DNA from: Candidatus Thorarchaeota archaeon
GTDB taxonomy: Archaea > Asgardarchaeota > Thorarchaeia > Thorarchaeales > Thorarchaeaceae
DNA: 53,676 nucleotides
Reading direction: 5' to 3'
NCBI GenBank assembly: GCA_016840825.1
Contig: JAEORN010000071.1
Location: forward strand, 1 to 53,676
The translations under genes and the position numbers were made by a program. The notes under the pieces are model-generated. The model was not told where the DNA came from. It worked only from the letters and a program-made list of their open reading frames with translations, and ran no database searches. This document shows, piece after piece, positions 7,214 through 49,306 of the stretch (positions within the stretch are counted from its first letter, which is position 1; each line of letters begins with the position of its first letter).

Positions 7214-7522
7214 CTATAGAGAGCTCAGAAAGTTCGCGCTTTCTTGCCCTTCATCTTCTGGACGGACGCGGAAGCCATTCCCCTGCTCATTGCGAAGAGT
7301 GGATGCAGTTTGAGCACCCACAAATCTCTTTCGCACACCAGAATTCTTGCCCATCCAAACGTAGATATTCTTGTTGGCATCATCAACTATACAATATACG
7401 CACTCGGAAGAAAGCGTTTGGCGCGTCACCTCTACCTGATGTGAAGTGCCATCCTCATGCATTTCGTAGGCTAATGTCATCGGGGGAAATGACTCCTGAT
7501 TACCGTGAGACATATTTCTCAT
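7214..7522 (-). CDS. single gelsolin-like domain protein
   Basis: The 102-residue protein is essentially one gelsolin/villin repeat. The core VYCIVDDANKNIYVWMGKNS is the typical strand-turn-strand (acidic turn, then YVWMGK), followed by an amphipathic helix RKRFVGAQTAS. Gelsolin-family proteins bind, cap or sever actin filaments in a calcium-dependent way, and one- and two-domain forms are a hallmark of Asgard archaea. A TATA-like box at 7545-7552 places the transcript start near the first ATG, so the mRNA may be leaderless. There is no signal peptide or membrane segment. Actin binding is inferred from the family, not seen. Confidence 0.78.
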   Translation of the reverse strand: MRNMSHGNQESFPPMTLAYEMHEDGTSHQVEVTRQTLSSECVYCIVDDANKNIYVWMGKNSGVRKRFVGAQTASTLRNEQGNGFRVRPEDEGQESANFLSSL

Positions 7523-15374: not shown

Positions 15375-16358
15375 ATGAAAGAAATCGATGAGATGAGTCT
15401 AGAACTCATAGGATTCCTACAAACTCAAAAACCAGAATCCAAGGCATTCATGTTACTGCAAGCCATACTCAAAAATCAAGGAGAAGAATCTCACCTCACC
15501 TACTCAGAGATTTATGATTCGTTCAGAAAAGCGATGCATGATACTGAAGTCAGTAAAGCTTGGGTCCATAGACTTCTAAAATCGCTCATCGATAATAAAA
15601 TCGTAGAAACTGAAGGTAAGAATAGGTACACCTGCAATATCGGTACTCTAACAGCAGGATTGAGTTTTCTCAAGGAAAAGAAGCTTGAAGATATTGAACG
15701 AGAATTCGCCGCTCTTTCTTCTGAGAAAAAAGCTGTAGAAGCTGTGAATACTTCTGAACTCGCTAAAAGTCTCTTCGAATCAGCGACAGGAATAGCGAAA
15801 ATCCCTGCCTCTCGATTCCTGAAGGGACTGGAAGAATTTCAACGGGTGACCAATGAAACAATCTACAGCGTAGCAAAAAAGGGGGATATCATTCGAACCT
15901 CGCTTACTGGCACAGAACGGTTCGCTTCAGTACCTTTCATAGATAGCTCAGCTGCACGTGTGCAGCGCATCGTTGTAGCAGCAAAAAAAGGAGTGGATGT
16001 CCGCTATTCTATCCCTCCCGTTGATCTAGGAAACTTGGATGAGCTTTGGAAACGCAAGGAAAATATCGAACTTTTTTCCAATATGTTGGAACTCCTGGCA
16101 GAAGATGAAGGTGATGGACCAGGTCTTCATCTCCGATTCAATCCAGCGGGTCAGAAAGGGCATCAGTTTGTCAGTCTGAACAGTGATGTTATCACTATGT
16201 GGATTTCTGAATACCCTCCAACCGCAGCGTGGATCACTAGAGAGTTCAATGCAGATCTGATTGATGATATCATCAATACATTCGATGAACAATGGAAAAG
16301 GGCAACTTCTATTCGTGATCATCTTAAGCAGGTCATGGCAAAGATGGAACAAAAGTAA
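15375..16358 (+). CDS. TrmB-like winged-helix regulator, paralogue A
   Basis: First of four related genes. The 327-residue protein has an N-terminal winged helix (about 20-85; SKAWVHRLLKSLIDNKIV as recognition helix and wing), a coiled-coil linker (about 95-125), and a C-terminal domain. The latter ends with the pattern AAWITREFNADLIDDI...FDEQW, like the ligand domain of TrmB regulators (a final F-x-x-x-W helix). TrmB proteins bind sugars or other effectors and repress or activate transcription. Paralogue B at 17110 shares long identical stretches such as SRFLKGL and EFQRVTNETIY. The ligand is unknown. Confidence 0.72.
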   Translation: MKEIDEMSLELIGFLQTQKPESKAFMLLQAILKNQGEESHLTYSEIYDSFRKAMHDTEVSKAWVHRLLKSLIDNKIVETEGKNRYTCNIGTLTAGLSFLKEKKLEDIEREFAALSSEKKAVEAVNTSELAKSLFESATGIAKIPASRFLKGLEEFQRVTNETIYSVAKKGDIIRTSLTGTERFASVPFIDSSAARVQRIVVAAKKGVDVRYSIPPVDLGNLDELWKRKENIELFSNMLELLAEDEGDGPGLHLRFNPAGQKGHQFVSLNSDVITMWISEYPPTAAWITREFNADLIDDIINTFDEQWKRATSIRDHLKQVMAKMEQK

Positions 16359-16414
16359 CGGATTAATGATGGAAATAAGGCACTCTTAGTTCGCGAATTG
16401 CTTTGTGGTGATAT

Positions 16415-16546
16415 GGAGAAGGTTGTGACAGGACAATCTGAGAGGTAGAGCAGGAAGTGGGGGCGAAGAAAGTACGGAAATTGCAACCAACTCGTAGAAA
16501 GTGAAGCAAGGTCTCACCCCCGAAGACCCTGCTTCGAGTATTCTCC
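16415..16546. ncRNA. candidate structured RNA (three nested or adjacent helices)
   Basis: GGAGAA (16415-16420) pairs with TTCTCC (16541-16546), enclosing two further helices. GGTTG (16421-16425) pairs with CAACC (16484-16488). A hairpin at 16503-16535 has 11 bp (GAAGCA and GGTCT arms), one mismatch and a 9-base loop. Together they make a closed multi-branch structure in a region without coding potential. The strand is unclear: a strong TATA-like element on the minus strand (about 16655-16665) points leftward through it. No known class was recognised. Confidence 0.4.
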
Positions 16547-16821
16547 AGGTCTGAACATGCCCAATCTAGCACCCCGCTACACCGTTGGAGTTTTTACCGT
16601 CATAGCGAAGTGATTACTTCTGACCAAGAGGTATGGTATGTATACTCTCCATAATATATATGTTAACTCTTTCAATATTCATAAAGTTACTAGGAACAAT
16701 TTCGTTGTTTTCGGATATATGTCAACAATTAGCAAAGCTTTCAGGACATGATGAACTATATCAACTATAGTGAAGCTATTATGTAGAGAAGTACACTTAA
16801 TGAGATAGAATCAAAATATAG
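16547..16821. other. AT-rich non-coding spacer
   Basis: I see no gene here. The stretch around 16640-16680 is very AT-rich, with a TATATATG-type element that could serve as a minus-strand TATA box. The rest shows no clear repeats. Confidence 0.4.
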
Positions 16822-16925
16822 ATTGGGCGGAGATGGGTCCCCCCGCCCTCACCAGCCTTTTTCCGCAGCATGCCAGTTAGGCTTTGAACGTTGGTTCAAT
16901 CCCGACCTGATTTTACCCAGCCGTT
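16822..16925 (+). ncRNA. candidate structured RNA with a tRNA T-arm-like hairpin
   Basis: A GC-rich island in AT-rich DNA. It has GGGCGG pairing with CCGCCC near its 5' end, then AGCCT pairing with AGGCT across about 20 bases. Next comes GTTGG-TTCAATC-CCGAC, which looks like a tRNA T-arm, although TTGAAC-GTTG-GTTCAA is an alternative hairpin over the same bases. No matching acceptor stem or anticodon arm could be built, so I do not call a tRNA. It may be a tRNA relic or an unrelated RNA. Confidence 0.3.
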
Positions 16926-17076
16926 CGATGTAATTACGTCGAAAGTACTTTAAAGGTGTAAGTTTTTCAATGTATATCTAGCTATCTAAAGCTACATTCG
17001 AAGGAATTTACTAGAAGTATTAACAAATAGATGTTTTTCAGCAGTTAGGAGCATTTTTTAGGATGGTTCTCGAAAT

Positions 17077-17091
17077 TGATAATGATTATCA
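17077..17091. promoter_or_regulatory. perfect 7-1-7 palindrome of Fur-box type upstream of paralogue B
   Basis: TGATAATGATTATCA is an exact match to the 7-1-7 consensus known for bacterial Fur (TGATAAT-N-ATTATCA). It sits 19-33 bases before the start codon of the three-gene regulator operon, a fitting position for a repressor site. The binding protein could be a Fur or DtxR family member elsewhere in the genome, or one of the adjacent regulators. Confidence 0.55.
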
Positions 17092-17109
17092 TCGGGGGAT
17101 GAATGTGGC

Positions 17110-18111
17110 ATGATGGATGATAGCCTAAAGGATGAGTTCGGTCTCATCGGGTTCTTCTTTCAAAATGGACTGGATTCAAGGTCCACTCTTCTAATCCAAT
17201 CAATCCTAAAGACCCAAGTTGACAAAGGAAGCTCACTCTCATTCTCTGAGATATACAATGCATTTACTAAAGAGAATCATGGTGAAAAGACAAGTAAGGC
17301 ATGGGTTCATAGATTGCTCAAATCGCTTATTGATATGAAGATCGTTGATGTCGAGAGCGGTAATGCAACTAGGAAGAAATACGTATGTGATATCAACACT
17401 CTGTCATCCGGTCTTGCACATATGAAAGAACAGGCACTGAATGAAGTGACAAACGAGATTACAGACCTCGAGGGAAAAAAACATCATCTACAGGATGTCG
17501 ATACGAGTAAGTTAGCAGAGAGGCTCCATGAGGTCCTTACAGGTGAGAAAAGATTACCTACATCCAGATTCTTGAAGGGGCTTGATGAATTTCAGAGGGT
17601 AACGAACGAAACGATATATAATCCAGCAGTTCCAGGAGATGTGATCAGGAACTCAGTTGGAAACGTGAAACCATTCATTGAGGGATATGATGACAGGACA
17701 CGTAGAATGTTCTTCATGGCAGCAAAGGGGGTAGAAGTAAGATACTTAGCTCCTCCAGAGGCATTAAGGGAAGAAGGTATCTTCGGCCCGAACATCAATA
17801 TAGATTTCATGGAACAAGCTCTCAAAGTATTGAAAGGAAAGGGAGATGAGGGAGAACCCGGGTTGCATGCACGCATAAATCCGGCAGCTGCAAAAAGCCA
17901 TCAATTCGCATGCTTGAACAATGAAGTTATGGCACTATGGATATCTGAAAATCCCCCAACAGCAGCATGGATTACTCGCGATTTCAATGCAGACTTGATT
18001 GATGATATTATCAATACATTTGAGGAGCAATGGGAAAAAGCACAACCAGTTAATGAAACCCTAAAAGAGATAGTAGAACGAAGTAAGAAACGACCTGAGA
18101 AGGGTGCATAA
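17110..18111 (+). CDS. TrmB-like winged-helix regulator, paralogue B
   Basis: The 333-residue protein is closest to paralogue A: the same winged helix (SKAWVHRLLKSLIDMKIV), coiled linker, SRFLKGLDEFQRVTNETIY block and terminal ITRDFNADLIDDI...FEEQW. The likeliest difference from A lies in the effector domain (about 200-290), which is more diverged. It is the first gene of an apparent operon with paralogues C and D, with a Fur-box-like palindrome just upstream. The ATG at 17113 is an equally possible start. Its role as a DNA-binding regulator is inferred from the fold pattern. Confidence 0.72.
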   Translation: MMDDSLKDEFGLIGFFFQNGLDSRSTLLIQSILKTQVDKGSSLSFSEIYNAFTKENHGEKTSKAWVHRLLKSLIDMKIVDVESGNATRKKYVCDINTLSSGLAHMKEQALNEVTNEITDLEGKKHHLQDVDTSKLAERLHEVLTGEKRLPTSRFLKGLDEFQRVTNETIYNPAVPGDVIRNSVGNVKPFIEGYDDRTRRMFFMAAKGVEVRYLAPPEALREEGIFGPNINIDFMEQALKVLKGKGDEGEPGLHARINPAAAKSHQFACLNNEVMALWISENPPTAAWITRDFNADLIDDIINTFEEQWEKAQPVNETLKEIVERSKKRPEKGA

Positions 18112-18113
18112 GC

Positions 18114-19043
18114 TTGAGCTCAAGACGTGATGCCATTCTTGCGAATTTGGGTTTTGATTTATCTGGTAGCCAAACAAGAGTGCTCAAAGCGATTCTGATG
18201 ACACAAGAAGAGATGGGGGCAGGTGTTAGATTTGAAACCCTTGAAGATAAGTTGCGTGAGTTGTTGGGAGGAAAGAAGATGTCACGTCCTCTCATATACA
18301 GATATCTAAAAGCCTTGGAAGAATCGTCTATCCTAAAAGTAAATCGTGATGTAAATCCGAATCTATACATGGTCAGCTTCGAGTCTATAATACAGGCAAT
18401 TGATAGAAGTCGGACAAACGGACTTGCTGAATTGGAGTCTTCTCTTAAACAGATAGAAACTGAGGAAATCTCTCTCAGGAATCTGGATCGTTCATGGCTA
18501 GCAAGAAGACTTCTTCTTCGTTTATCAGGCAAACCAGAAAGAGTTGGAACTAAAACCGCCAGAGGCCTAATGGAGGCACATTTCCTTATTGATAATGAAA
18601 TCTATTCCCGAGCAATGGAAGGAGATACAATCAGAGTGACACTGGATTGGTTCACCCTTTCAGAAAGAGCAGAGATTGAAAGACAAGCCGCTGGATTAAG
18701 ATTGGCAGTCAAGGGAGTCCTTATCAAATCGCTTCAGTACTTTCCTGAAAGAGTATCAAAAGATGTCGTTCGTTTACGATACAATCGGTTGAAAGATCTT
18801 CGAGATAAGGGAATAGAAGCTGATTATCGAATAGCAAATCGAAGTGCTAGGACATACCAAGGAGTAGCACTGAATAAAGACAGTATTGCTCTTGTTGTTG
18901 CTGAGGAACCTCTTACTCTTGTTTGGATACCAAGAGTTAGTAATGCAGCTCTGATAGATGAAGCTGTTTCCAGCTATGATCGAGATTTCGAAAATGGAAT
19001 CGATTTCTTGGAGTATTATAAGGAGGAATTCGATGAGCAGTAA
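18114..19043 (+). CDS. TrmB-like winged-helix regulator, paralogue C (diverged)
   Basis: The 309-residue protein has the same order of parts as A and B but lower similarity. The winged helix is at about 15-85 (MSRPLIYRYLKALEESSIL). A helical linker follows, then a GDTIRVTLD block and a C-terminal ending VWIPRVSNAALIDEAVSSYD. It starts with TTG two bases after the stop of paralogue B, preceded by AAGGGTG, so translation is probably coupled. The aromatic F-x-x-x-W end of A and B is reduced to YDRDF here. Confidence 0.68.
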   Translation: MSSRRDAILANLGFDLSGSQTRVLKAILMTQEEMGAGVRFETLEDKLRELLGGKKMSRPLIYRYLKALEESSILKVNRDVNPNLYMVSFESIIQAIDRSRTNGLAELESSLKQIETEEISLRNLDRSWLARRLLLRLSGKPERVGTKTARGLMEAHFLIDNEIYSRAMEGDTIRVTLDWFTLSERAEIERQAAGLRLAVKGVLIKSLQYFPERVSKDVVRLRYNRLKDLRDKGIEADYRIANRSARTYQGVALNKDSIALVVAEEPLTLVWIPRVSNAALIDEAVSSYDRDFENGIDFLEYYKEEFDEQ

Positions 19044-19995
19044 TGAGGAAGAGTATTTCGACATTTTGGGGATAAGCCTCATTTCTAGAAACTACGAGAT
19101 TCTAAAGACGATTCAGAGCTTTACAGAGGAACAAGGCATACCTCCGACCTTCAATGATATCGAGAATAGAGTAAATGCAACAAGAAACGAATCTTTCAGT
19201 AAGCAATGGATATACAAATGCCTGTCAGACCTTGAAGAAGAGGGAATGATATCAATTGATAGAATAAATAAGCCTACAACCTACGCAATTAGTCTACTTA
19301 GCTTAAGGGCAGGATTGGATCGCCTCGTTCTTCAGAAGCTAAAAGAACTAGAAGAATCGAAAAAGGAAATTATTGCGAGGAAAGAGGAGATTCTTAGCGA
19401 AAGTACATACAATTTGGCCTTCCATCTGGTGGATACGCTTTCAGGAAAACGTATTGAGAAACCGACAGGCGTAATTGAGGGAGTAGACAATATCCGACGT
19501 TTCATACTTCTAGAGATATGTGAACTATCAAAGCCAGGAGATATCGTCAGGGCAAACAAAAGACTCGAATTTATAGAATCAAAGCATGATGAAACTATAG
19601 TCTCTATTGAACGGTCGATTCTAGAAACAATCACAAAGGGTGTGAAGATCAAAGCCCTTCTAGCTCACCATTCACTTGAGGAAGCATACCAAATGGCAAA
19701 CCTACGGGACCTTTTTGAAAGGGAAGCAACACTCTTCCAGCAAGCAATTTCTAGCGAATTAATTGACATTCGGTCCCCAACAGAGGATCTCATGCCGTAT
19801 CGGATAATTGCTCTTAACAATGACAAGATGTTCATGTTTCTTTCAGATTCAGGAGATCCTGACACAGTGGCATTGATATTTAGAGAGGACAACCCAGCTC
19901 TTGTTGACGACGCAATTGAAAGATTCGATGCTATCTTCAATTCAGGAACGAAGATAAATGAAGATGTAATTTCTGACATCAATGAAACGCTATGA
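19033..19995 (+). CDS. TrmB-like winged-helix regulator, paralogue D (diverged)
   Basis: The start is the ATG at 19033, since a strong AAGGAGG lies seven bases before it; earlier in-frame ATGs would run far into paralogue C. The gene overlaps C by 11 bases. The 320-residue product again has a winged helix (FSKQWIYKCLSDLEEEGMI), a Glu/Lys-rich coiled coil (about 95-125), a GDIVRAN block matching GDIIRTS of A, and a C-terminal ALVDDAIERFDAIF helix. Downstream it converges with the DHH phosphoesterase gene. Confidence 0.7.
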   Translation: MSSNEEEYFDILGISLISRNYEILKTIQSFTEEQGIPPTFNDIENRVNATRNESFSKQWIYKCLSDLEEEGMISIDRINKPTTYAISLLSLRAGLDRLVLQKLKELEESKKEIIARKEEILSESTYNLAFHLVDTLSGKRIEKPTGVIEGVDNIRRFILLEICELSKPGDIVRANKRLEFIESKHDETIVSIERSILETITKGVKIKALLAHHSLEEAYQMANLRDLFEREATLFQQAISSELIDIRSPTEDLMPYRIIALNNDKMFMFLSDSGDPDTVALIFREDNPALVDDAIERFDAIFNSGTKINEDVISDINETL

Positions 19996-23647: not shown

Positions 23648-25960
23648 TTACTTGTTACTCCTCTTTTTCGCCTCTGCAGCCTCTCGAGCTTCTCTCCACA
23701 TGAGCTCTGACAGAACTGTGAACATATCAGCGACACCTTCACCAGTCTTTGCTGAACTCTCCATGTAAAAGAAGCCTTGACTCTCAGCCCATTCCTTCGC
23801 TTCATCCGATGGTACTGCTCTATCAGGAAGGTCGATCTTGTTCCCGACACAGATCATTGGGACTCGCATTCCTATAGACTCATCCGCTTCCTCAACCCAT
23901 TTCACAAGTTCTTGGTAGGACCTACGTCTTGTGACGTCAAAGACTAGGATCACACCTGCTGCTCCGCTGTAGTACATCTTACGAACAGCCTTGAAACGCG
24001 CCTGACCAGCAACGTCCCACGCTTGCACCTTGATACCAATGGAAAAGGATTCCTCTGGAGGTGAGATGTGTGTGAGCTTCACAGCGAATTGAGAACCAAT
24101 GGTCGTCTTGTAGTCGGTCTCAAATGCTCCTGTTGTATAACGATTCACTAGCGCAGTCTTACCGACCGCACCCTCTCCGATAATCATGGTCTTGAAGAGA
24201 TAGCTGTACCCATCTAAATCCGCTCCAGGACGAATGGGCTTTATTGCTCGGGATCGTATCTCTGTTATCAATGCACTCTCGACCTCAAAGACTTCAGTGG
24301 AAACTGCAGTTGTATCGAGTGAAACAGCGTCTTCTACAACGGGTGATTCCATTGTAGGAGATACGAAATCATCTGTGGACTCACTAGACGATTCTCCAAA
24401 TAGCTGATCTAGAAGCTCTTCTGCAGCCTTGAGAGATTCGGTCGATCCACTTGAGGTCTTAATTTGGATCTTCTCAGCACCAGAAGAGGTCAGGACTGAT
24501 CCAAATCCAGTTCCTTCAACTTCAATGCTATCAATCGGAGTGTCATCCTCTATGACCGTTTCATCCACGTGGATAGTCACTGGCGCCGTCGCAGCAGGAG
24601 CAGCTTGTACCATGCCTTCATCTACGAGAATTGCAGTCTCTGGAGTCGTCACCTGTTTTACCTTGCCATCATCTCCTGTCCACATCAGTACGATGGGGCG
24701 AACAATGACGCTTCCTTGTTCTCGAGGTACTAACTTGATCTCCATTGTCCTTGTTTCTCGAGGGCCAATATCAAAATTGATTTGTTGAGGCTCGACATCC
24801 ATATTTGCCTTGGGGAACCAGTAAATCTTGCCGGTAATCCCCTGAACTGGTTCATCTGTTACGTTCATAATACTGAGCTTAGCAATCATTTCATCCTCTG
24901 TTGTGGGAGGAGGAATGACTTTGAATTTTGGAATAACGTGATAGAGACCTTGAATAATCTTAAGAGGTCCATCTGATACTCCAGCAAGGATTTCCTTCCG
25001 GTCATCACCACTGGTATCGCCAACAGCGATAGATAGAATCTTTGAACCGATATTTATCTCAGAGATCTTCTGCAACTCAGCCATGTAAAGGTTGTAAAAA
25101 GCTATCTTGTAGTCAGAAGTCGCAACGACGACCTCGTCCATGTGATCAGCATTCAGCTCAGCGATTCGTATTGATAATGCTTTGACATTGGGAAGCTCTG
25201 AAAATAGTTCCAGCTTGCTTTCTTCATTTCGGTATACCCTAATAGAGCCATCATGAGTCACGACACCTAGCTCCATCTTTCGGTCACCCAATAGATCTCC
25301 AGATGCTATAGAGATGACTGGACTTGGTAGCTCAAGAGCTTCAATCTGATCAAGTCTACTATCCGTGAGCTTGAAGACACGAAGCGTTCCGTCACGATTT
25401 CCGGTGACTATCTCATCGATCTCATCACCAATGACATCACACACTCCGATGGCAATAGGCATGTCTTCGAGTACTTTCTTGGCGATTTCTTTTATCGTAT
25501 TGTCAGGATCCATTCTTAGAACTCTGAGGGTCATGTCACTTGCTCCAGCGACAATCTCATTCTTATTGTCACCAGTGACATCTGTAACAACAACAGTGGT
25601 CACAAACCTATCAATTGGATATTCACTCAGAAGTTCTAGATTACCACTTGGTGCATATCGATAGACTTGAACAGTACCTGCAACTCCCGGGGATTCACCA
25701 GGACCAACACTTCGACCGACGACTATCTCCATCATCCCGTCATTATTCGCATCCGCGATCTTGATGGAAAGAATAGCCCCAGTAACATCATGTTGAGCTA
25801 GAAGTACTGTTTCCGAGTTATTTGAATCATACAGCCTTATTACTCCATCACGACCACCTGTCAGGAGTTCTGATGCACCAGATCCAGATACATCACCAAC
25901 AGCTATCGCGCTTGTGCTTAGTTCGTCTTCGATTTCAAAGAGTATACGTGGAGAAACCAC
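23648..25960 (-). CDS. seven-bladed beta-propeller / Ig-like domain / Rab-type GTPase fusion
   Basis: The 770-residue product has three parts. The first 330 residues hold seven FG-GAP-like repeats (for example DVSGSG...GGRDG, DANNDG, DVTGDN, DVIGDE, DLLGDR, ELNADH, DTSGDD), enough for one complete propeller. An Ig-like beta-sandwich (about 335-440) and a Ser/Thr/Glu-rich linker follow. The last 180 residues are a Ras/Rab-type GTPase: GEGAVGKT, the threonine of TIGSQF, WDVAGQ, NKID and SSAK are all intact. There is no prenylation cysteine. I prefer the GTG at 25960 because the 18 residues before it are atypical; an ATG at 26014 exists. The arrangement suggests a soluble GTP-controlled scaffold, but no function is proven. 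Confidence 0.88.
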   Translation of the reverse strand: MVSPRILFEIEDELSTSAIAVGDVSGSGASELLTGGRDGVIRLYDSNNSETVLLAQHDVTGAILSIKIADANNDGMMEIVVGRSVGPGESPGVAGTVQVYRYAPSGNLELLSEYPIDRFVTTVVVTDVTGDNKNEIVAGASDMTLRVLRMDPDNTIKEIAKKVLEDMPIAIGVCDVIGDEIDEIVTGNRDGTLRVFKLTDSRLDQIEALELPSPVISIASGDLLGDRKMELGVVTHDGSIRVYRNEESKLELFSELPNVKALSIRIAELNADHMDEVVVATSDYKIAFYNLYMAELQKISEINIGSKILSIAVGDTSGDDRKEILAGVSDGPLKIIQGLYHVIPKFKVIPPPTTEDEMIAKLSIMNVTDEPVQGITGKIYWFPKANMDVEPQQINFDIGPRETRTMEIKLVPREQGSVIVRPIVLMWTGDDGKVKQVTTPETAILVDEGMVQAAPAATAPVTIHVDETVIEDDTPIDSIEVEGTGFGSVLTSSGAEKIQIKTSSGSTESLKAAEELLDQLFGESSSESTDDFVSPTMESPVVEDAVSLDTTAVSTEVFEVESALITEIRSRAIKPIRPGADLDGYSYLFKTMIIGEGAVGKTALVNRYTTGAFETDYKTTIGSQFAVKLTHISPPEESFSIGIKVQAWDVAGQARFKAVRKMYYSGAAGVILVFDVTRRRSYQELVKWVEEADESIGMRVPMICVGNKIDLPDRAVPSDEAKEWAESQGFFYMESSAKTGEGVADMFTVLSELMWREAREAAEAKKRSNK

Positions 25961-26100
25961 TTCTATACAGCTCCATGTCAGTAGGATGAGTTCGGAAATA
26001 TGGAAACATATCATCTTTTAGGTCTAGTCTGTATCCGAACCTCATAACAGCTTCAATATCCACCCTTTTTTACTTTCCTCGCTTGTCACAGAAAGTACAT

Positions 26101-45289: not shown

Positions 45290-45820
45290 CTACAACCTTC
45301 CAAGATGCTTTTCTAGCAGACCCTTAGTGACGACCTGAAAGAGCTCTTCAACACCTTCACCAGTCTTAGCAGAAACCTCTACGCAAGGAGCATTGTATTG
45401 AGATGCGAATTCACGAGCATCTTCAAGAGAGATACCCGAGCCCTCTTCACGTTCATCAATCTTATTTCCTACAAAGATAAGACCGCATTCAGGTGCGTTC
45501 GCCTTCAATCTTTCAATCCAATCCTTTAGACGCTCAAGGGTGAAGTACCTAGTTGAGTCATACACAGCTAAAGCAATTCTTGATCCTCTGAAATACTCAG
45601 AAACGACATCTCTGAATCGTGGCTGCCCACCTAGATCCCACAACATCAGTGTTGCACCACTACCTCCGACTTCAACCTTCTTTGTCGCAAGATTTACACC
45701 GATTGTGATCTTCATGTCCTCATCGAATCGATTCTCGGTATATCTTAGAGTGATACTGGTCTTTCCAACACCACCTTCGCCTATGAGCACAGTTTTGAAT
45801 ACAGGGGGTCTTGAAGACAT
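45290..45820 (-). CDS. Rab/Arf-like small GTPase
   Basis: The 176-residue Ras-superfamily GTPase has all G motifs: GEGGVGKTS (14-22), the Thr of ITIGVN, WDLGGQ (Asp-x2-Gly-Gln), GNKID and SAKTG. There is no C-terminal prenylation cysteine. The WDLGGQ form is closer to Arf/Rab types. AGGTGA five bases before the ATG at 45820 selects that start; a GTG at 45829 is less good. It is the last gene of the operon with the membrane, longin and zinc-ribbon genes. Confidence 0.93.
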   Translation of the reverse strand: MSSRPPVFKTVLIGEGGVGKTSITLRYTENRFDEDMKITIGVNLATKKVEVGGSGATLMLWDLGGQPRFRDVVSEYFRGSRIALAVYDSTRYFTLERLKDWIERLKANAPECGLIFVGNKIDEREEGSGISLEDAREFASQYNAPCVEVSAKTGEGVEELFQVVTKGLLEKHLGRL

Positions 45821-45833
45821 GTCTTTCACCTAA

Positions 45834-47192
45834 TTATGCAGTACCTAAGTACCTATCTGCTCTTCCGGTTACTCCAAGCCACCAAAGCAAGAACGCTAGG
45901 AATAGCGGAATAGCGCTTTGAATTGTCGCAGTTTCACCACTATATGATCCTAAGATTAGGAAGATGATACCGACTCCCAACAGCAGAGGTCGTAGATAAC
46001 CTTTCCCACCTGCACTTCGAATTCTATACCCAAGACGCAGGTAAAGTATCAACGGGATAATTGTCTGGATTGCGAGAGTGATTCCCATGATCATGCCACG
46101 ACCGGGAATAGCATCTGGATCAATTGGATAGAATAGAAATGTATAGACAAATGCTGGCAAACCTATAATGACTGGAGCTAGAGACCAGCTCTTCCAATCT
46201 AAGGCCAAAAATGCACCAATATTCAGAAGCATCATCGTGATCATGCCAATTGACAGATAGAGATAGTGGAAGTTGACATCAGTGACAGGAGCAATCTCAT
46301 CTATTGTTGGTAGCAAGAAACCTAAGGATGCAAAAATGAAGAACACTGAGAGCAGAAGTGTAGCTCTATTCTTGCTCTTGGAATATCGACCATACGTATA
46401 TGCGGCGGTGCCAAAACCTATCGCTGTTCCTATTGCGATGAGAGTTAGCGATACGAGGTACAGCGAAATTACATGAGTTCCTGTGCTCACAAGGTATGAA
46501 ACCCATAGAGACATGATAGATAGTGAAGCGCCGTATCCCCAATATTCCCCAGAGATGCCAATCTCAGGAAGATAGAATGCTACTATTAATAGAGCAGGAC
46601 CATACAATCGGATGGCGATGAGCAAGAACGTTATCAAGAAACTACCTTGAAAGATTAGGAAAAGGGGATAGAGTGGATAAATCGTAAGCACGGCTGCAAA
46701 CGAAAGACTGGTTACTCTGCGAGTTGTGTAAGTCAGGTACAAGAAGAGAGCCGCCGGAGTAAAGTAGAGTATTTCAACTATTATCCCGGGTATGGCATAA
46801 AGAAGGAAGGAGGGCAGATCAAAAAATATGACACCAAACGCTACCACCCAGCCAATGAGTAATATGATAGTAGGAACTATGTAATACTTCGATCTTCCCA
46901 ATATCATGAGGGCAGCTATTGTCAAGATGAACGCACCAAACATGGCAGAGGCATAGTAGAAAGCGAGTATCTCAATGGCGGGATTATAGTTCAAATTAAC
47001 ATGCAATAAGAGGGAGGCAATTCCGAGAAAGAAAATACCAACTGAAGAAATGTATAGAGGCCTTCCTGCACCTCGTTCTTCTTCAGGAAGTTGCGCAACT
47101 CTCTTTCGAGTATAGTTGATCAAAACAAATGTGGCAGCAATCAGTAGAAGACCAAGAAAGCCTTCAGATATCCAATAGATAGGTACTTGCAT
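45834..47192 (-). CDS. polytopic membrane protein of unknown family
   Basis: A 452-residue, very hydrophobic protein with about 13-14 membrane helices, short loops and no large soluble domain. The ATG at 47192 is preceded by GAGGTGAAAAA; a longer frame from 47267 would overlap the longin gene and add polar residues. It lies in the operon directly before the GTPase gene and 10 bases after the longin gene. I do not recognise the family. Its place suggests that the GTPase and longin proteins act at this membrane protein. Confidence 0.82.
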   Translation of the reverse strand: MQVPIYWISEGFLGLLLIAATFVLINYTRKRVAQLPEEERGAGRPLYISSVGIFFLGIASLLLHVNLNYNPAIEILAFYYASAMFGAFILTIAALMILGRSKYYIVPTIILLIGWVVAFGVIFFDLPSFLLYAIPGIIVEILYFTPAALFLYLTYTTRRVTSLSFAAVLTIYPLYPLFLIFQGSFLITFLLIAIRLYGPALLIVAFYLPEIGISGEYWGYGASLSIMSLWVSYLVSTGTHVISLYLVSLTLIAIGTAIGFGTAAYTYGRYSKSKNRATLLLSVFFIFASLGFLLPTIDEIAPVTDVNFHYLYLSIGMITMMLLNIGAFLALDWKSWSLAPVIIGLPAFVYTFLFYPIDPDAIPGRGMIMGITLAIQTIIPLILYLRLGYRIRSAGGKGYLRPLLLGVGIIFLILGSYSGETATIQSAIPLFLAFLLWWLGVTGRADRYLGTA

Positions 47193-47202
47193 TTTTTCAC
47201 CT

Positions 47203-47592
47203 CTATAACATCTTGGATGCCCAGTCTGTGGCAGTTCCAGTTTTTCCGTCAGCCTTGTCAGCGGCATTCTTCAGAAGTTCGATTGTGTCATCAGTGACGA
47301 TTTCTATATTCATATCAGAAAGGATGTTTCTCAGTGCGGCGTTTGCAGCAATAGAATCCTTGTCTTGAGAATCATGAATAGTAACTACGAAGAGCTTACT
47401 TGTATCTGAAATGACGAGACGATATTCATCTAATGAAAGCTCTTTGACGTTTTTCCCAGATACTTTTTGGCTATACATTTGAATGGCAGAGAGGAATCCT
47501 CCAAAGAGATTCTCATCCATCTGAAATTGCCCACGATTTATTGCAGCCAATGTCTCACCGCTTTGATTGATGATGTAGATACTATGAATCAT
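47203..47592 (-). CDS. longin-like domain protein
   Basis: The 129-residue protein opens HSIYIINQSGETLAAI, the first beta-hairpin of longin domains. It continues with a helix FGGFLSAIQMYSQKV and a strand EYRLVI, in the order of the longin/adaptin-small-chain fold. Longin domains in eukaryotes regulate SNAREs and GTPases and are frequent in Asgard archaea. Its tail ends TDWASKML, resembling the zinc-ribbon protein's KWMSDF. It lies two bases after the zinc-ribbon gene. Confidence 0.75.
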   Translation of the reverse strand: MIHSIYIINQSGETLAAINRGQFQMDENLFGGFLSAIQMYSQKVSGKNVKELSLDEYRLVISDTSKLFVVTIHDSQDKDSIAANAALRNILSDMNIEIVTDDTIELLKNAADKADGKTGTATDWASKML

Positions 47593-47594
47593 TG

Positions 47595-47855
47595 CTAGAA
47601 GTCACTCATCCATTTCTGGGCTTTATCAACCGAGCTTCCTTCACCATCTTGTACGACCTCACTCGCAGCTTCAACGTCACGGATTGTGAGAGTTCGGTCG
47701 ACGAAGAGGATGCATGAATGCCCATTGGAGCATTTTGCAGTAACTAGTACGGGAACCCGTGAAGCATTTGTAATCGAGTCCTCGTCCACCTTTACATTCT
47801 CTACTGGAGCATTGCATTTGGGACAAGGGACAGATTTCAAAGTCGTCATTCCCAC
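47595..47855 (-). CDS. zinc-ribbon protein of the GTPase/longin operon
   Basis: The 86-residue protein has CPKC near residue 11 and a second ligand group KCSNGHSC near 47, then a strand LFVDRTLTIRDVE. Its last residues, DKAQKWMSDF, resemble the end of the longin protein. A GAGGT seven bases upstream selects the GTG at 47855; an ATG at 47849 is possible. It is the first gene of the four-gene operon. Confidence 0.75.
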   Translation of the reverse strand: MGMTTLKSVPCPKCNAPVENVKVDEDSITNASRVPVLVTAKCSNGHSCILFVDRTLTIRDVEAASEVVQDGEGSSVDKAQKWMSDF

Positions 47856-48114: not shown

Positions 48115-48381
48115 ATGGTAAAGGCATATGTTCTAATCAAGACAGAAAGCGGGAAGGAAGATAGTGTGTTGCGTCAACTACTCGAACTCTCTTTCACCGA
48201 AGAAGCACACAAGGTATTCGGGCCGTATGATATAATTGCTGAGGTCAGGGGTCGTGATATGGAAACCCTTGTCGAGATTATAACTCAGAAGATTAGAGTA
48301 ATACCTGGTACAATTGATACTCAATCACTAATGGCAATTGACATTGAGATTGATATGGCTTCTACTAGCCTCGCAAACTAA
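48115..48381 (+). CDS. stand-alone RAM (Lrp/AsnC effector) domain protein
   Basis: An 88-residue protein consisting of the ligand-binding and oligomerisation domain of Lrp/AsnC regulators (VKAYVLIKTESGKEDSVLRQ; VFGPYDIIAEVRGRD; IPGTIDTQSLMAI) without the HTH. Such SARD-type proteins may bind amino acids and modulate full-length Lrp. It is a single gene. Confidence 0.88.
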   Translation: MVKAYVLIKTESGKEDSVLRQLLELSFTEEAHKVFGPYDIIAEVRGRDMETLVEIITQKIRVIPGTIDTQSLMAIDIEIDMASTSLAN

Positions 48382-48514
48382 ATGGCATCATCTAATACAT
48401 GCGGATACGAGACTTTCACTTCGGAACTATGTGATATTTAGTTCATCTAAAATTTAGTTAAAAAGGAGTTGTAGGTAGTCAAATCGGGACCATTTATTGT
48501 TGGAGGTAACCCGG

Positions 48515-49306
48515 ATGAAACCACTTTCAAGAAAACCCTTTGTTCTAATGCTACAAGATGATGCTGGTGAGCTTTCACATCTCAAGCTTGATCCAGGGAA
48601 GGTGAATAGTAACACGGCTGTTATCGTTCTCGATGAATATAGCGATACGTGCTGGGTATGGATTGGTAGAGATGTCAATATGCCAACTCGGATGCACGCA
48701 TTAAGGATGAGTAAAAGTGTACAGAAATCCGGCTATACGGTAGGAGCAACCACAATTGGTATGTCAGTTTCAAATCTAATTGAAATGATGGAGAAGGACG
48801 ACGGAGACCCAGAAGTTGCATCAAATATAACATCATTCAGAGAGATGCTTAGTCGAAAATGGGGTTTTGATGATGGTGTTCTTGCATATGATCCAAATCG
48901 TGCAAAATCCTTTGAAGCTAGACCACCTGAGATTGTTGAAACAGCAACTCCATCAATCACAACTCATGTCGCGCCTAGAAAGAAGGAAATGCTCGAAGTT
49001 GAAGCTGAAACAGTTGAGCCAGAACCACAACCCGTTATTGCAGGATCAATACCAAGTATCACTGCCGAGAAGAAAGCAGCATTTCTACTATATGCGGCAG
49101 TCAAAAACTCCGATGTGGTATACGTTGAGAAAATTGAACGTGATGGAGTATCAGGTCTAAAGCTTGAGGTTCCAGGTAGTCCACCTCTAATTTTAGAGGC
49201 TCTTCTTGACGGGAGTCACATATCAATCTCGCCAGAAGACTTCGGTTCTCATGAGCAATCGTCGGAGATAAAGAAGACCTATGAAGATTGGTTGAATAAA
49301 CTATAA
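48515..49306 (+). CDS. gelsolin-like domain protein with a C-terminal unknown domain
   Basis: The N-terminal segment (about 12-85) has the gelsolin strand-turn-strand VIVLDEYSDTCWVWIGRDV and a following helix RMHALRMSKSV. A charged linker with Glu/Pro (about 140-185) follows. A second small domain (about 190-263) ends TYEDWLNKL. The start is the ATG at 48515, because a GGAGGTAA lies before it and an upstream TTG would fall inside that site. The gelsolin reading is by pattern and is weaker than for the 7214 gene. Confidence 0.65.
   Translation: MKPLSRKPFVLMLQDDAGELSHLKLDPGKVNSNTAVIVLDEYSDTCWVWIGRDVNMPTRMHALRMSKSVQKSGYTVGATTIGMSVSNLIEMMEKDDGDPEVASNITSFREMLSRKWGFDDGVLAYDPNRAKSFEARPPEIVETATPSITTHVAPRKKEMLEVEAETVEPEPQPVIAGSIPSITAEKKAAFLLYAAVKNSDVVYVEKIERDGVSGLKLEVPGSPPLILEALLDGSHISISPEDFGSHEQSSEIKKTYEDWLNKL

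What the first reader, a model, noticed from the sequence alone, without database searches (positions are those of the whole stretch)
45290..47855. Four-gene operon of zinc ribbon, longin, polytopic membrane protein and Rab/Arf-like GTPase
All four genes lie on one strand with gaps of about 2, 10 and 13 bases and their own Shine-Dalgarno sites. In eukaryotes longin proteins and Rab/Arf GTPases meet on membranes to control vesicle tethering and fusion. An archaeal operon pairing both with a 13-14-helix membrane protein, which I cannot assign to a family, would be a defined system for placing a GTPase on a membrane without prenylation. What is seen: the genes, the motifs and the order. The system-level role is inferred.
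Basis: partly seen in the sequence, partly recalled or inferred. Interest (0 to 1): 0.75.

Follow-up and report, generated by a model that had tools for sequence, protein, structure and literature searches.

The report
Conserved archaeal Rab–longin–membrane protein operon
In Thorarchaea and some other Asgard archaea, four neighbouring genes that have stayed together through deep divergence encode a Rab-like molecular switch, a longin protein of the kind that controls such switches in our own cells, a small zinc protein and a membrane protein built from two receptor-like seven-helix halves, so together they look like a ready-made membrane signalling unit.

The parts
47595..47855 (-). Zinc-ribbon protein, 86 aa; Cys-Pro-x-Cys ... 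Cys-x3-His; first gene
   Evidence: (three Cys and one His invariant in 26 of 26 rows)
47598..47621 (-). C-terminal tail of the zinc ribbon, A-Q-K-W-M-S-D-F
   Evidence: motif in 24 of 26 alignment rows
47203..47592 (-). Longin-fold protein, 129 aa; second gene
47206..47232 (-). C-terminal tail of the longin, A-T-D-W-A-S-K-M-L; low confidence in the monomer model
   Evidence: motif in 25 of 28 rows; pLDDT below 50 at residues 118-123 and 125-129
45834..47192 (-). Polytopic membrane protein, 452 aa, 15 predicted helices, N-out/C-in; third gene; no Pfam family
46572..47180 (-). N-terminal seven-helix unit (residues 5-207)
46485..46550 (-). Linker helix 8 (residues 215-236)
45867..46463 (-). C-terminal seven-helix unit (residues 244-442)
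45290..45820 (-). Rab-like GTPase, 176 aa, no C-terminal cysteine; fourth gene
45755..45781 (-). P-loop GEGGVGKTS of the GTPase
   Evidence: sequence

Best explanation
The operon encodes one membrane-attached small-GTPase control unit. The 15-helix protein (two fused seven-helix units in the same orientation) sits in the cell membrane as receptor or scaffold and presents a conserved basic cytoplasmic face. The longin and the zinc ribbon dock there, probably through their shared C-terminal A-x-x-W-x-x-x-hydrophobic tails; the longin, likely as a dimer, binds the Rab-like GTPase and promotes (or otherwise controls) nucleotide exchange, so that a signal or lipid state at the membrane sets where and when the GTPase is loaded. 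Shown by computation: the genes, their co-inheritance, the predicted longin fold, the predicted membrane topology, the internal duplication, the shared tail, the missing prenylation cysteine. Inferred: docking, dimerisation, exchange activity, sensing. Output unknown.
Confidence: 0.55

Rival explanations
1. A GTPase-gated transporter or lipid scramblase: the 15-helix protein moves a solute or lipid and the longin and GTPase gate it.
For: Many helices and a two-fold repeat are usual in transporters (general knowledge); Foldseek lists MATE and other carriers among its weak matches.
Against: Almost no charged residues mid-membrane and strongest conservation at the cytoplasmic ends; the two halves have the same predicted orientation with a linking helix, not the inverted repeat of many carriers; no transporter family in Pfam.
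Confidence: 0.15
2. A trafficking-type unit: the longin and Rab-like GTPase act as a tether or coat-like adaptor on membrane protrusions or vesicles, with the membrane protein as cargo or anchor.
For: Fold neighbours of the longin include TRAPP, AP and COPI subunits and longin SNAREs; the GTPase is closest to Rab21, Rab35, Rab14 and Rab11 in sequence.
Against: None of the four genes is a coat, SNARE or tether by the searches made; the longin fold is shared by different functions; nothing tested here links it to vesicles.
Confidence: 0.2
3. Gene-order inertia: the four genes are co-transcribed but work separately.
For: 5 of 14 loci also keep the flanking GDPD, AsnC-like and gelsolin-like genes, so local order is conserved there anyway.
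Against: In the other 9 of 14 loci those neighbours were not matched in the fetched flanks, some of them short; two gene orders exist; membrane proteins are down to 22% identical to the window's; strong matches to three families occur in the same 23 genomes.
Confidence: 0.1

Closest known systems
Actinobacterial conservon (CvnA-D; actinobacterial G protein system)
   Same: Four syntenic genes: a membrane protein, a protein of the roadblock/longin superfold, a small protein and a Ras-superfamily GTPase, proposed as a membrane complex resembling G-protein-coupled regulation (PMC8510531 and PMC13343842, passages).
   Different: The membrane protein is not a histidine kinase, a longin stands in place of the roadblock, a zinc ribbon in place of the DUF742 protein, and the GTPase is Rab/Ras-like by Pfam; CvnD is MglA-like according to the paper.
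TRAPP longin subunits (Trs23/Bet5) with Rab1/Ypt1
   Different: No TRAPPC3-type gene is among the four; GTPase without prenylation cysteine; dedicated membrane protein.
MglA-MglB
   Different: MglB is a roadblock (shorter alignment, residues 1-98 of the model); no membrane partner of this kind is part of the pair (general knowledge).
GPCR 7TM bundle (class B, adhesion, Frizzled)

Membership tests
Longin domain | beta-beta-alpha-beta-beta-beta-alpha-alpha order with longin fold neighbours | tested here: met
   predicted model
Longin domain | Match to a Pfam longin family | tested here: not met
   window protein none; PF19036 Fuz_longin_1 in 3 of 28 rows only, best E 0.0015
Rab GTPase | Ras-family G domain with P-loop, switch II Gln, NKxD, SAK | tested here: met
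Rab GTPase | C-terminal prenylation cysteines | tested here: not met
   absent in the window protein; 23 of 24 rows have no Cys in the last six residues, one of them cut at a contig end
Conservon | Histidine-kinase-like membrane protein (CvnA) | tested here: not met
   no Pfam kinase domain in 35 rows
Conservon | MglB-type roadblock (CvnB) | tested here: not met
Conservon | DUF742 protein (CvnC) | tested here: not met
   no DUF742 match for the zinc ribbon
Conservon | MglA-family GTPase (CvnD) | not tested
   only Pfam and PDB sequence comparisons were made
GPCR | 7TM bundle, N-out and C-in | tested here: inconclusive
GPCR | Sequence match to a GPCR family | tested here: not met
   none in Pfam or PDB sequence searches
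Zinc ribbon | Conserved metal ligands in two knuckles | tested here: met
   CPxC and Cx3H invariant in 26 of 26 rows; metal binding itself not testable here
Zinc ribbon | Match to a known zinc-ribbon family | tested here: not met
   only weak hits to various zinc families in single rows, best E 0.0053; no PDB sequence match below E 0.28

The most novel reading that the evidence does not exclude
A GPCR-like control of a Rab-like GTPase in Asgard archaea: the membrane protein is a single-chain dimer of two seven-helix receptors, and the C-terminal helices of the longin and of the zinc ribbon each insert into the cytoplasmic cavity of one half, much as the last helix of G-alpha does in GPCRs, so that receptor state drives exchange on the GTPase.
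Probability: 0.12. Interest if true: 0.95.

Novelty: new variant of a known kind. Interest (0 to 1): 0.74.

Why it matters
How Asgard archaea attach and control their many Rab-like GTPases without prenylation is open. PMC10933270 (passages) found that MK-D1 GTPases generally do not lie in operons with longin or roadblock genes, so partners are hard to match from the genome, and its introduction names longins for Loki and Odin but not for Thor. Here is a Thorarchaeal longin tied to one GTPase clade, with a dedicated membrane protein. That gives a defined set of four proteins to reconstitute, and a testable case of a membrane receptor acting on a small GTPase outside eukaryotes. None of the listings and passages that I saw reports this operon or its membrane protein (searches: on Asgard or archaeal GTPases, longins, roadblocks and seven-helix receptors, and 83 on conservons). 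The library holds only open-licence PMC papers, so print elsewhere is not excluded.

Tried and rejected
Naming the membrane protein by family: no Pfam family and only a chance-level NCBIfam hit (E 0.29) for the window protein; among its 35 aligned rows only p53-inducible11 (6 rows, best E 0.00025) and DUF3568 (2 rows), which I judge chance. Foldseek alone gave no match below E 0.19. The GPCR similarity comes only from VIA-align, which re-aligned 987 of the 1000 chains that Foldseek ranks highest, so the absence of other 7TM folds from its rows means nothing.

Single-bundle relatives: weak profile hits of 241-277 aa (L062-L067, seven proteins) align to the C-terminal half with hhalign probability 17-95%, less to the N-terminal half (at most 26%), with reversed controls at most 1.8%; a lead, not proof. 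Two of the seven are below 35%.

GTPase tree labels: I labelled L046, L054, L068-L072 and L076 'other' although they lie in operon loci (L073 is the mini-cluster GTPase), and L163:418-930 'B' although it is outside the operon; I therefore use only the clade, not the group statistics. The clade of 42 rows also holds L106 (G166), L116:1444 (G070) and L110 (G201), not seen in an operon, and two remnant loci (L091, L092). L020 (G184, convergent) is in it on a long branch. Paralogs in the tree are the best-scoring ones of six genomes plus three others, not all.

Thresholds (membrane protein at least 60 bits, longin and zinc ribbon at least 100 bits) were set after seeing gaps in the score lists. 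Below them: membrane-protein hits of at most 37 bits in 7 further genomes; zinc-ribbon remnants of 69.6-87.1 bits in G208, G066, G071, G072, and zinc-ribbon matches at E 0.001 in 135 of 227 genomes in all; longins of 93 bits and less, matches at E 1e-12 in 65 of 227 genomes in all. In the longin search at most 18 candidates per genome were scored. The chance figure 1/C(227,23) = 5e-32 ignores kinship and is not used.

Full report
WHAT IS THERE. Four minus-strand genes, in transcription order zinc ribbon (47595-47855), longin (47203-47592), membrane protein (45834-47192) and GTPase (45290-45820), are separated by 2, 10 and 13 bases. Sites such as GAGGT, GAGGTG and AGGTGA precede three of the four starts; the longin start has only a weak one. 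The window belongs to a Thorarchaeote by its nearest named relatives (membrane protein 76% identical to a Candidatus Thorarchaeota MAG; zinc ribbon 87%). No whole genome is held for the window.

CONSERVATION. I searched 227 Asgard genomes (the phylum of a Helarchaeota genome reached through L001). The membrane protein profile (A1, 35 rows) gives matches of at least 60 bits in 23 genomes; 7 more have weak hits of at most 37 bits. The longin profile gives at least 100 bits in exactly those 23 genomes, next best 93 bits; the zinc-ribbon profile gives at least 100 bits in the same 23, next best 87 bits. Weaker relatives of longin and zinc ribbon are widespread (65 genomes at E 1e-12; 135 genomes at E 0.001). 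The 23 genomes hold 30 membrane-protein pieces. In 26 pieces enough upstream sequence is visible, and in all 26 a longin and before it a zinc ribbon lie directly upstream on the same strand. The other 4 lie at or near a contig start (G189:C89, G203:C15, G070:C326, G190:C103); before the last of them the end of a longin is still visible. In 13 of the 26 the GTPase follows the membrane protein, as in the window (one cut after its P-loop region by the contig end); in 11 it precedes the zinc ribbon; 2 have none adjoining on the same strand: G184:C18 (one copy, GTPase convergent) and G191:C91 (none found in 1.7 kb upstream or 2 kb downstream). G200 and G201 hold one copy of each order; G184 and G191 hold two copies.

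INDEPENDENCE FROM FLANKS. With larger flanks from 14 loci, 5 (G207, G201, G191, G218, G200) share the window's neighbours GDPD, AsnC-like and gelsolin-like genes; in the other 9 these were not matched in the fetched flanks (some short because of contig ends), while the four genes, or the visible part of them, are there. Membrane proteins in the block are down to 22% identical to the window's. A G208 locus has the same neighbours by eye but only zinc ribbon and GTPase, and G066, G071 and G072 hold worn or lone zinc ribbons: losses, or assembly faults.

GTPASE. Pfam Ras E 3e-40; nearest solved sequences are Rab21, Rab35, Rab14 and Rab11, and the Thorarchaeota Rab 7ezb at only 114 bits, so 7ezb is probably not the ortholog. 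The G motifs are conserved; 23 of 24 rows have no cysteine in the last six residues, one row being cut at a contig end. In a tree of 65 rows the operon GTPases lie in one clade of 42 rows with 98/98 support (midpoint root), apart from the closest paralogs of six genomes; a few members of the clade were not seen in an operon (label errors are told in Tried and rejected).

THE SHARED TAIL. Longin and zinc ribbon end alike: A-x-x-W-x-x-x-hydrophobic at the C-terminus (for example zinc ribbon KAKGWLGNI and longin KAKIWAEYGL in G068). The pattern (A, S or T at the first place) is in 25 of 28 longin and 24 of 26 zinc-ribbon rows. Among 351 largely non-overlapping ORFs of at least 60 aa in the window and 15 loci (many of them not genes), 30 end in it, and all 30 are members of these two families: 27 in the operons themselves and 3 in extra copies beside them (L177, L184). 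The pattern was made after inspection; the ORF count is a check of its specificity. The longin tail has low confidence in the monomer model, as expected of a docking peptide or of a membrane-binding helix.

PHYSICAL LINK. In G203:C15 the membrane protein runs in frame into the GTPase, where G203:C110 has a stop codon followed closely by the GTPase start. This is a single MAG contig and could be an error, but it fits a GTPase held at the cytoplasmic C-terminus.

MECHANISM. The parts match a receptor or scaffold, a longin platform, a small adaptor and a GTPase. Komatsu et al. (known to me only as described in PMC8510531) proposed such a logic for the conservon: CvnA binds CvnB and CvnC, which bind CvnD-GDP, and activation leads to exchange. 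The Thor operon resembles it part for part in supposed role but not in homology; it may work like a conservon, but it is not one.

LITERATURE. PMC10933270 (passages) names Rab, Rag and roadblock homologs for Thor and longins for Loki and Odin, and states that MK-D1 GTPases are generally not in operons with longins. PMC4316618 (passages) surveys prokaryotic GTPase neighbourhoods; the word longin does not occur in its main text. PMC13343842 and PMC8510531 were seen as passages. Other papers were seen only in search listings.

Noticed in passing
window 23648-26014 (-): A 788-aa protein fuses a beta-propeller with Pfam similarity to BBSome subunits (BBS7 propeller E 6e-19, BBS2_Mid E 8e-16, PTHB1_N E 7e-7; FG-GAP_3 scores higher, E 1e-20) to a C-terminal Rab-like GTPase (Ras E 2e-45); related GTPase matches in long frames (770-785 aa) occur in G214 and G201. 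A possible lead on BBSome origins.
   Followed up: partly
L167:476-2318 and L168:661-2472: A second Thorarchaeal longin family (89-92 bits to A2 in these two loci) lies in another gene row: a gelsolin-like protein (named by eye; no Pfam hit in L167), a roadblock (Pfam Robl_LC7 E 3e-10 in L167) and the longin.
   Followed up: partly
L067:486-2674: A single seven-helix-type protein related to the C-terminal half stands divergently beside a roadblock-like protein (by eye; no Pfam hit) and an Arf/Ras-like GTPase.
   Followed up: partly
L096, L113, L117: Other GTPase plus zinc-ribbon gene pairs (GTPase 114-167 bits, zinc ribbon 28-47 bits) in G195, G002 and G166; the pairing may be a wider Asgard theme.
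   Followed up: no
L001:641-1400: In a Helarchaeota contig a longin-like frame is followed by an Arf/Rab-like GTPase frame that lacks its P-loop part in the ORF seen.
   Followed up: no
window 48497-49306 (+) and 7214-7522 (-): Gelsolin-like genes; the second has Pfam Gelsolin E 4e-5, the first is named by eye (no Pfam hit). The first lies just upstream of the operon, divergent, beside an AsnC-type ligand-binding domain protein (48115-48381, Pfam E 6e-13), and this neighbourhood is kept in 5 of 14 loci.
   Followed up: partly
L164:1221-2676 (G191:C194): A mini-cluster zinc ribbon-longin-GTPase without the membrane protein lies just upstream of a complete operon.
   Followed up: no
window 15375-19995 (+): Four similar-looking, near-consecutive ORFs of 309-345 aa that look like TrmB-type regulators by eye (label recalled, not tested).
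   Followed up: no
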